From assembly GCA_017527945.1 (NCBI GenBank), contig JAFXPL010000170.1, positions 1-55,453 of the forward strand: 55,453 nt of DNA, written 5' to 3'. The notes beneath the pieces are model-generated. The model was given only the letters and a program-made list of their open reading frames with translations. It made no database searches and was not told the origin of the DNA. The translations under genes were made by a program, and so were the position numbers. This DNA is from Bacteroidales bacterium. Lineage in GTDB: Bacteria > Bacteroidota > Bacteroidia > Bacteroidales > WCHB1-69. Position 1 is the stretch's first letter, and each line of letters starts with the position of its first letter. Positions 21,406 through 22,986 of the stretch are shown here, piece by piece.

Positions 21406-22986
21406 TTAAAAGGCATAATCGTCTGAGTATTCCATCTGTGAGGGATCCTTGCCCCCGCCGCTGTCGCCATTGGCCGCACTGTCGTAATATTCGGCGGAAA
21501 AGTTCTCGTTCGGCGTGATGCCCGCCGAGGGCGAAGCAAAGCCGCCGCCTTCCATGCCGAAGGTGCCCTCGCTGACATCGCAGAACTTCGTGAACTGGCT
21601 CTGGAAACGCACCTTCACGTTGCCCGTGCTGCCGTGACGGTTCTTTTCGAACATAATCTCCGCCATCCCGTCGGCCGGCGTGTTGTCCTCAAATGTGTCA
21701 AGATGGTAATACTCAGGACGATAGATGAAGAGCACCATATCTGCATCCTGCTCGATGGAGCCAGACTCACGCAGGTCGGACAGTTGCGGGCGCTTGGATC
21801 CGCCGCGGGTCTCCACCGCACGGCTCAGCTGCGACAATGCAATGACAGGAATGTTCAATTCCTTCGCTAAAGCCTTGAGAGAACGTGAGATAAAGCTAAT
21901 TTCCTGCTCGCGGTTGCCTCCGTGCTTCGAATTGTCGGTTCCCGCCTGCATCAGCTACAGATAGTCGATAATGACCATCTGTATGTCGTATTTATGCTTC
22001 AGGCGGCGGCACTTGGCACGCAGGTCGAAGACCGACAGCGCAGGGGTGTCGTCGATGAGCAGGTTCGCGCTGTTCAGCTTGCTGACGTTCTCCCACAGTT
22101 TCGACCACTCCACGTCGGACAGCGTACCCTTGGAGATGTGGTCGGAGGGGATGCCCGACTCAATGGAGAAAAGACGGTGCACCAGCTGAGTGGCCGACAT
22201 TTCCAAGGAGAAGAAGGCCACCGGCTTGTCGAAATCGAGGGCCGCGTTGCGGGCGATAGAGAGCACGAAGGAGGTCTTACCCATACCGGGACGGGCTGCG
22301 AGAATCACCAGGTCAGACTTCTGCCAGCCACCGGTCTTCTCGTCGATGGCGCGGATACCGCACGGCACACCCTGCAAATCATCTTGAGAATCACGCATTT
22401 CCGTCAACTCATTGAGGGCAATGCTCACCACGTCGCCTAACTCCTTGCTGTCGCGTTTAAGGTTGTTCTCCACAATGGAAAAAATCTTCGACTCGGCATC
22501 GTCAAGCATCACCAAGACATCGTTGCTGTCGTCGTAGGCATCGTTTATAATCGAGTTGCAGTGACGGATAAGCTCGCGAAGAATGAACTTCTCCATCACG
22601 ATGCGAGCGTGGAACTCGACGTTGGCGGCAGAATTCAACCGGGTGGTCAGACCCGCCACGTATGAGGCGCCCCCAGAAAGTTCCAACTGTTTGTCTTTTT
22701 TCAACTGATTGGTAACCGTCAGCACATCAATCGGTTGCGATGCAGAAAAAAGTTTCTTTATGGCACTGAACACATGCTGGTTGGCCTCCACATAGAACAT
22801 TTCAGGTTGCAGGATGGAGAGGACCTCGGTCACGGCGTTGTCGTCAATCATCAAGGCACCGAGCACCGCCTCCTCGAACTCCACCGCCTGCGGGGTGAGT
22901 TTGCCGGTGGTGCCCAAAAGGGTGTCAATACGGTTGTATGACATCGTGCGCGGCGCCTTGCTTGTTGTAATTGTTTCGTTTTCCAT
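21406..22986 (-). pseudogene. dnaB: Replicative DNA helicase dnaB interrupted by one in-frame TAG
   Basis: Two abutting frames make one DnaB. 21955-22986 (343 residues) carries the N-terminal primase-interaction domain, Walker A ARPGMGKT and the start of Walker B, ending VIIDYL. 21406-21951 continues in the same reading frame with MQAGTDNSKHGGNREQEIS and the remaining RecA-like motifs (ALSQLSRAVE, LSDLRESGSIEQDADMV). The junction is GAC TAT CTG TAG CTG ATG CAG, where intact DnaB has DYLQLMQ; a single CAG to TAG change explains it. With Gln restored the protein is 526 residues, near the usual length. Everything else is well conserved. DnaB is normally essential, so this is either a base-call error, a decayed second copy, or a gene read through by amber suppression. 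Confidence 0.85.

What the first reader, a model, noticed from the sequence alone, without database searches (positions are those of the whole stretch)
21949..21963. In-frame TAG in the Walker B motif of dnaB
On the minus strand the DnaB frame reads GAC TAT CTG TAG CTG ATG CAG, where DnaB homologues have Asp-Tyr-Leu-Gln-Leu-Met-Gln. Both halves are otherwise intact and in the same frame, giving 526 residues if TAG is read as Gln. TAG is used as a normal stop elsewhere here (for example lptE, hdrB, fabF, the C10 protease, mnmE), so global recoding is unlikely. Possible explanations: base-call error, fresh mutation with a second dnaB copy, or amber suppression to Gln (some gut phages recode TAG to Gln).
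Basis: partly seen in the sequence, partly recalled or inferred. Interest (0 to 1): 0.75.

Follow-up and report, generated by a model that had tools for sequence, protein, structure and literature searches.

The report
Lone stop codon in helicase gene
In one stretch of DNA from an uncultured Bacteroidales bacterium, the gene for the essential DNA-unwinding enzyme DnaB carries a single stop signal where relatives have the amino acid glutamine; it most likely reflects a sequencing or assembly slip or a rare doomed variant rather than a new way of reading genes.

Summary
In detail: on the minus strand, codon 344 of an otherwise open 526-codon dnaB frame is TAG (21957-21955), three residues after the Walker B aspartate. 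Gln stands there in 80 of 80 loci and 119 of 119 other listed proteins aligned. Both halves show normal strong purifying selection, so the lesion is young or unreal. TAG is an ordinary stop: it ends 10 of 31 window genes, and in the closest genomes it ends dnaB in 7 of 16, fabF in 7 of 12 and mnmE in 7 of 14. That rules out general recoding in practice. No CTA-anticodon tRNA was seen among 45 tRNA places of one relative or 19 pattern matches in 16 relatives. The broken form is nearly a singleton in a 5.8-billion-protein set: 2 member sequences for the N half and 1 for the C half, against 19 for a neighbouring gene's cluster. No genome is held for the window, so suppression or a second helicase stays possible. 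Best reading: consensus error or unfixed lethal variant (0.72). Interest is low.

The parts
21406..22986 (-). dnaB frame, 526 codons before the TAA, interrupted once by TAG
   Evidence: DnaB N domain and DnaB_C split across the stop; single frame, no other stop
21955..21957 (-). in-frame TAG, codon 344, three residues after the Walker B Asp341
   Evidence: Gln in 80 of 80 loci and 119 of 119 other listed proteins
21955..22986 (-). N-terminal ORF, 343 aa: N domain, linker, Walker A, Walker B Asp
   Evidence: 329.1 bits to TIGR00665, under that family's cut-off of 385.25
21406..21951 (-). C-terminal ORF, 181 aa from an ATG two codons after the TAG: rest of the RecA-like core (sensor Gln, DNA-binding loop and arginine-finger region by recalled motif positions) and a variable tail
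20840..21388 (-). SpoU/TrmH-type rRNA methylase gene directly downstream of dnaB, intact
   Evidence: PF00588, 2-142 of 142; next to dnaB in relatives too
23130..23816 (-). rnc (RNase III), upstream of dnaB
23820..25076 (-). fabF, ends in TAG at the conserved end; readthrough would run in frame into rnc (229 codons to the next stop)
41324..42688 (+). mnmE, ends in TAG at the conserved FCIGK end

Best explanation
The TAG is not a fixed, working feature of the organism. Either the consensus base is wrong (sequencing or assembly error in a metagenome-type contig), or the assembler caught a fresh nonsense variant carried by cells that cannot found a lineage. The species' working dnaB is an ordinary 526-codon gene. 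Shown: the TAG, the intact remainder, normal selection on both halves, TAG as an ordinary stop, and the near-singleton state of the broken form. Inferred: that the base is an error or an unfixed variant; no reads were available.
For: Gln at this place in every relative examined (80 of 80 loci, 119 of 119 other listed proteins; 20 of 20 nearest loci). TAG is one substitution from a Gln codon, and about 3.6% of random substitutions in 24 window genes (39,909 coding bases) would make a stop, so one wrong base is enough. The C-half core has dN/dS 0.0035-0.0193 against 16 relatives: no decay. The N-half cluster P0063 has 2 member sequences and the C-half cluster P0121 has 1, each on 1 contig. A faster-evolving neighbour falls at 95% identity to cluster P0241 with 19 member sequences, the next hit being 68%. 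A stop fixed in the species should recur about as often. None of 102 DnaB matches in 98 of 104 searched family genomes has an internal stop. Conserved genes of related assemblies do carry single lesions: fabF of relative G040 comes in two frames that meet at residue 60, which looks like a frameshift.
Against: No sign of a generally poor sequence: no second split gene was recognised. That check is limited, because the other frames were picked as open ORFs and some Pfam matches are partial. Private substitutions in the window's dnaB have a normal spectrum (10 of 17 C>T or G>A, against 59 of 97 pooled in 16 relatives), so no DNA-damage signature. CTGCAG and CAGCTG, words that cover the site in many relatives, are only mildly rare (27 seen, 33.7 expected; 20 seen, 26.8 expected), so motif-specific miscalling has no support. 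Cluster member lists cannot be opened: the second member of P0063 may be another TAG carrier or only a fragment, and P0241 also lists only 1 contig despite its 19 members. An intact same-species DnaB was not seen directly (nearest listed full-length protein 91%).
Confidence: 0.72

Rival explanations
1. The TAG is real and is read as Gln by an amber-suppressing tRNA-Gln (anticodon CTA), either a mutated host tRNA-Gln(CTG), as in classical supE strains (recalled), or one brought by a resident TAG-to-Gln phage.
For: Gln is exactly the residue needed. Relative G001 has both tRNA-Gln(TTG) and tRNA-Gln(CTG), so a one-step route to a suppressor exists. TAG read as Gln is shown by proteomics for two crAss-like phages of human gut samples, and such recoding is called particularly prevalent in phages of Firmicutes and Bacteroidetes (PMC9523058, abstract and passages). 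Both gene halves are under selection.
Against: No CTA tRNA among 45 tRNA places of G001 and none among 19 pattern matches in 16 relatives. But the pattern covers class-I tRNAs with A37 only, and anticodons were read systematically in 1 of the 16 genomes. 10 of 31 window genes end in TAG, and suppression at fabF would extend it 229 codons into rnc, so efficient suppression would be costly. The broken form is nearly a singleton. No tRNA lies in the window.
Confidence: 0.12
2. The TAG is real and dnaB is inactive, but a second replicative helicase from a prophage or mobile element replaces it, as phage P1 Ban can in Escherichia coli (recalled; P1 ban is listed as a dnaB homologue in PMC10695390, passage).
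For: 7 of 16 closest genomes carry further, distant DnaB_C-bearing frames besides chromosomal dnaB (best stretches 89-164 bits against about 350).
Against: Those extra frames are far from DnaB in score and are not shown to replace it. No second DnaB in the window. The broken gene shows no decay, so loss would have to be very recent.
Confidence: 0.07
3. A split helicase: ribosomes stop at the TAG, restart at the ATG two codons on, and the two pieces assemble.
For: The sequence TAG-CTG-ATG would allow coupled restart, and only two residues would be lost.
Against: The cut falls just after the Walker B strand, inside the RecA-like core that should act as one domain (inference). No relative shows a stop there (0 of 102 matches with an internal stop). 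The 181-aa piece is a singleton.
Confidence: 0.03
4. The organism reads TAG as Gln throughout (code 15).
For: The single Gln-position TAG only.
Against: 10 of 31 window genes end in TAG. fabF and mnmE end in TAG at the conserved C-terminus, as do many relatives, and the C10 protease ends in TAG right after a complete sorting tail. 7 of 16 nearest dnaB genes themselves end in TAG.
Confidence: 0.01

Closest known systems
Replicative DNA helicase DnaB (TIGR00665; PF00772 + PF03796), Bacteroidales chromosomal type
   Same: Domain order, 526 codons, DYLxLM Walker B context, gene next to a SpoU-type methylase gene as in relatives
   Different: One in-frame TAG at the invariant Gln; the translated N piece stays under the family cut-off
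In-frame stop codons in conserved bacterial genes (Belinky et al. 2021, PMC7918605; abstract and passages seen)
   Same: A TAG/CAG-type stop with good alignment on both sides and low dN/dS around it
   Different: That study kept only stops found at the same place in two or more genomes, to exclude sequencing errors; no second genome with this stop appeared in my calls
TAG-to-Gln recoding by gut phages (code 15; PMC9523058, abstract and passages seen)
   Same: TAG where Gln is expected
   Different: A bacterial housekeeping gene with one TAG, in a stretch where TAG also ends genes; no suppressor tRNA found
Classical amber mutants of essential genes kept alive by supE-type suppressors (recalled)
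   Same: Would give exactly this sequence
   Different: No suppressor demonstrated; natural, not selected in the laboratory

Membership tests
Replicative helicase DnaB (TIGR00665) | Full-length product over the curated cut-off | tested here: not met
   N piece 329.1 and C piece 183.3 bits against a cut-off of 385.25. The frame as DNA is a dnaB gene; its product under the standard code is not a complete DnaB
Replicative helicase DnaB (TIGR00665) | N-terminal DnaB domain followed by a RecA-like core with Walker A and B | tested here: met
   PF00772 at 32-132, PF03796 from 206 and on across the stop; alignment to solved DnaB chains over 29-471 (frame read through)
TAG-to-Gln genetic code (code 15) | TAG frequent inside genes and not used as a stop | tested here: not met
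   10 of 31 genes end in TAG; TAG at matching gene ends in relatives; no second TAG-split gene recognised
Amber-suppressed strain | tRNA with anticodon CTA in the cell | not testable with these tools
   No genome held for the window; none in the window; none seen in the part of the relatives examined
Conserved in-frame stop / readthrough gene (criteria of PMC7918605) | Same stop at the orthologous place in two or more genomes | tested here: not met
   0 of 20 nearest loci, 0 of 80 loci and 0 of 119 proteins; the second member of cluster P0063 could not be read
Conserved in-frame stop / readthrough gene (criteria of PMC7918605) | Purifying selection on both sides of the stop | tested here: met
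   N half dN/dS 0.043-0.085, C half 0.045-0.094, C core 0.0035-0.0193 against 16 relatives; dS is high (0.77-1.94), so ratios are rough
dnaB loss covered by a prophage helicase (P1 Ban-like) | Second, closely DnaB-like gene in the same cell | not testable with these tools
   Own genome not held; none in the window; only distant extra frames in 7 of 16 relatives
Pseudogene | Further lesions or relaxed selection | tested here: not met
   No second lesion in the frame; low dN/dS in both halves. A very recent pseudogene is not excluded

The most novel reading that the evidence does not exclude
A natural Bacteroidales strain whose only replicative helicase needs amber suppression to Gln: the chromosome has become dependent on a suppressor tRNA, perhaps one of a resident TAG-to-Gln phage. 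That would be an addiction of the host's replication to a phage's genetic code.
Probability: 0.08. Interest if true: 0.85.

Novelty: not a real feature. Interest (0 to 1): 0.15.

Why it matters
If the stop were real and read as Gln, a cell's DNA replication would depend on misreading a stop codon, which would make host capture by phage code-switching directly testable. As the evidence stands, it is a reminder that a single stop in an essential gene of a metagenome-type contig needs reads before it is given meaning.

Tried and rejected
Global recoding: rejected on TAG at conserved gene ends. DNA damage or deamination signature: not seen. Miscalling tied to CTGCAG or CAGCTG: not supported. Old pseudogene: rejected, selection normal. 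Plasmid copy of the region 20840-23816: no megablast match in 72,556 plasmid records. CTA tRNA in relatives: 19 pattern matches in 16 genomes. Of these, 16 are tRNA-Arg(tct) by ARAGORN, one (L153) is a contig-end piece that matched the Rfam tRNA model and has the same letters, and two (L144, L154) gave no tRNA at the match. Anticodons were read for 45 of the 661 tRNA matches that one search counts over the 16 genomes, namely all of G001.

A second TAG-split gene in the window: the plus-strand pair 7787-9883 and 9929-10615, one frame with a TAG between, was checked on finding it. The first is a C10 protease with a complete Por sorting tail that ends three residues before the TAG, the second a separate DUF4159 protein, so that TAG is an ordinary stop. 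A second in-frame TAG in a relative (G035, ketoacyl-synthase paralogue, flagged) looked like possible support for suppression. It lies at the gene's very end in repeat-like sequence and not at a Gln, so it was dropped. The first codon count by pattern reached only part of the 80 loci and was replaced. An earlier count said 103 rows; the tallies add to 102. A draft of this report counted 'the only internal stop in 24 genes' as evidence; that was circular, since those frames were picked as open ORFs, and it was withdrawn.

Literature: five full-text searches ran. One search gave nothing on dnaB amber mutants, nothing that I used. Seen of papers: PMC9523058 abstract and passages, PMC7918605 abstract and passages, PMC10695390 two passages; the rest as search listings only.

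Full report
What is there. The minus strand of the window holds a dnaB frame from ATG 22986 to TAA 21406-21408. Codon 344 is TAG at 21957-21955; no other stop interrupts it. Pfam splits across the stop as one protein would: DnaB N domain at 32-132 and DnaB_C positions 1-138 in the first piece, DnaB_C 144-254 in the second. A tblastn of the frame against the window finds no second DnaB, and ARAGORN finds no tRNA in the window. The neighbours are fabF, rnc and a SpoU-type methylase gene; the dnaB-methylase pair recurs in relatives.

Where it comes from. No whole genome is held for the window. The nearest genome-collection record is a MAG named 'uncultured Bacteroidales bacterium' at 90% protein identity (L001). 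A DNA search of 104 genomes of that relative's family found matches in 97, of which 16 are at 81-84% identity over nearly the whole gene. The window's own two pieces appear in the protein set on a contig of 55,996 bases.

How strong the constraint is. The residue is Gln in 20 of 20 nearest loci, in 80 of 80 loci, and in 119 of the 120 proteins listed; the one left out, P0063, is the window's own truncated piece. These sets overlap in part, and the list is capped at 120. Aligned to solved DnaB chains (2vye, 2r6a), Asp341 matches the Walker B aspartate and Gln344 lies three residues on. By recalled motif positions the stop removes the sensor glutamine, the DNA-binding loops and the arginine-finger region, so the 343-residue product should be inactive.

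Selection. Against the 16 closest dnaB genes, dN/dS is 0.043-0.085 in the N half, 0.045-0.094 in the whole C half and 0.0035-0.0193 in the 125-column C core; dS is high, so the ratios are rough. The window's median dN ranks 6th lowest of 17 in the C core and 12th of 17 in the whole C half, the tail being variable. It has 6 private amino-acid changes at otherwise invariant columns besides the stop, the highest of the 17; the next are 5 (L088) and 4 (L096) (all). The gene is not an old pseudogene. Either the stop is very young, or it is not real, or it is read through.

Is TAG a stop here? Yes. 10 of 31 window genes examined end in TAG, 7 of 25 and 3 of 6 more. fabF ends in TAG at the conserved C-terminus; the 12 orthologous loci examined end at the same place, 7 with TAG, 4 with TGA and 1 with TAA (one search lists one more orthologue, a second one in G025, not examined). 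mnmE ends in TAG at the conserved FCIGK; 14 relatives end there too, 7 with TAG, 5 with TAA and 2 with TGA (2 of 16 genomes had no match). The dnaB genes of the 16 closest genomes end in TAG 7 times, TGA 6 times and TAA 3 times. The C10 protease ends in TAG three residues after a complete sorting tail. Genome-wide TAG-to-Gln is thus excluded in practice. Efficient suppression would also be costly: fabF's TAG would run 229 codons in frame into rnc.

Is there a suppressor? It cannot be tested in the organism. In relative G001, all 45 tRNA places were scanned with ARAGORN, 30 as loci and 15 fetched by place: none has anticodon CTA, and both tRNA-Gln(TTG) and tRNA-Gln(CTG) are present. A pattern for class-I tRNAs with a CTA anticodon and A37 gave 19 matches in the 16 closest genomes. 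Sixteen are tRNA-Arg(tct), one is a contig-end piece with the same letters, and two gave no tRNA at the match. Class-II tRNAs and those without A37 were not covered, and the other 15 genomes' tRNAs were counted but not read one by one.

Is there a second helicase? Each of the 16 closest genomes has one full-length chromosomal-type DnaB match (349-352 bits). Seven of 16 have further, distant DnaB_C-bearing frames whose best stretch scores 89-164 bits. These could be mobile-element helicases (inference). Nothing shows that they could replace DnaB.

How common is the broken form? In 98 of 104 family genomes with a DnaB match, none of 102 matches has an internal stop. In the protein set of 5.8 billion, the N piece heads a cluster of 2 member sequences (P0063) and the C piece a cluster of 1 (P0121; the next hit there is 66% identical). 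A neighbour 4 kb away that evolves faster (thioredoxin-like, 27124-28647) falls at 95% identity to a cluster of 19 member sequences (P0241), with the next cluster at 68%. That cluster probably stands for this species or species group. If the stop were fixed in it, the truncated forms should recur about as often, and they hardly do. Limits: member lists cannot be opened; members may be fragments; the contig column reads 1 for all three clusters; and an intact same-species DnaB was not seen directly (nearest listed full-length protein 91%, P0001).

Error or variant? About 3.6% of random substitutions in 24 window genes with 39,909 coding bases would give a stop. At 1 to 10 wrong bases per 100,000, that is about 0.015 to 0.15 expected false stops in this stretch (my arithmetic; the error rates are assumed). 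That is small for one window but unremarkable in a scan of many. Single lesions do occur in related assemblies: fabF of G040 is met in two frames that join at residue 60, which looks like a frameshift. No signature of a particular error type was found: the substitution spectrum is normal and CTGCAG and CAGCTG are only mildly rare. No second split gene was recognised in the window, but that check is partial: most Pfam matches run the full model, while a few are partial (hdrA-like, LolA, first phosphoglucomutase domain). Belinky and co-workers (PMC7918605, passages) set sequencing error aside by keeping only stops seen at the same place in at least two genomes; this case does not pass that test here.

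Verdict. A true observation, most likely an error in the consensus or an unfixed lethal variant (0.72). Amber suppression (0.12), a replacing helicase (0.07), a split helicase (0.03) and general recoding (0.01) follow; 0.05 is left for causes not considered. Read mapping over three bases would settle it.

Noticed in passing
23816-23822: fabF (ending in TAG) and rnc lie in the same frame with three bases between stop and start, so readthrough of the fabF stop would give an in-frame FabF-RNase III fusion.
   Followed up: partly
7787-10615: A C10 protease with Spi-type inhibitor, CUB and Por sorting domains ends in TAG and is followed in the same frame by a separate DUF4159 gene.
   Followed up: partly
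47146-55194: A 2682-aa plus-strand protein with nine fibronectin type III stretches and a Por secretion tail; long ORFs also lie on its antisense strand.
   Followed up: no
14657-20737: A 2026-aa bacterial alpha-2-macroglobulin-like protein downstream of the dnaB-methylase pair.
   Followed up: no
1-55453: GTCGAC (1 seen, 23.9 expected) and CTCGAG (1 seen, 18.3 expected) are strongly avoided, like CTAG (3 seen, 78.5 expected), which may point to a restriction system.
   Followed up: no
G036:C10, G031:C14, G032:C67, G013:C79 and others (places): Seven of the 16 closest genomes carry extra, distant DnaB_C-bearing frames besides chromosomal dnaB.
   Followed up: no
L166 (G040:C35:2682-6758): fabF of relative G040 is matched in two frames that meet at residue 60, which looks like a frameshift in a conserved gene of a related assembly.
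   Followed up: no
L201 (G035:C73:8000-12600): A ketoacyl-synthase paralogue whose last residues appear replaced by TAG-rich repeat-like sequence where at least one relative (L206) continues.
   Followed up: partly
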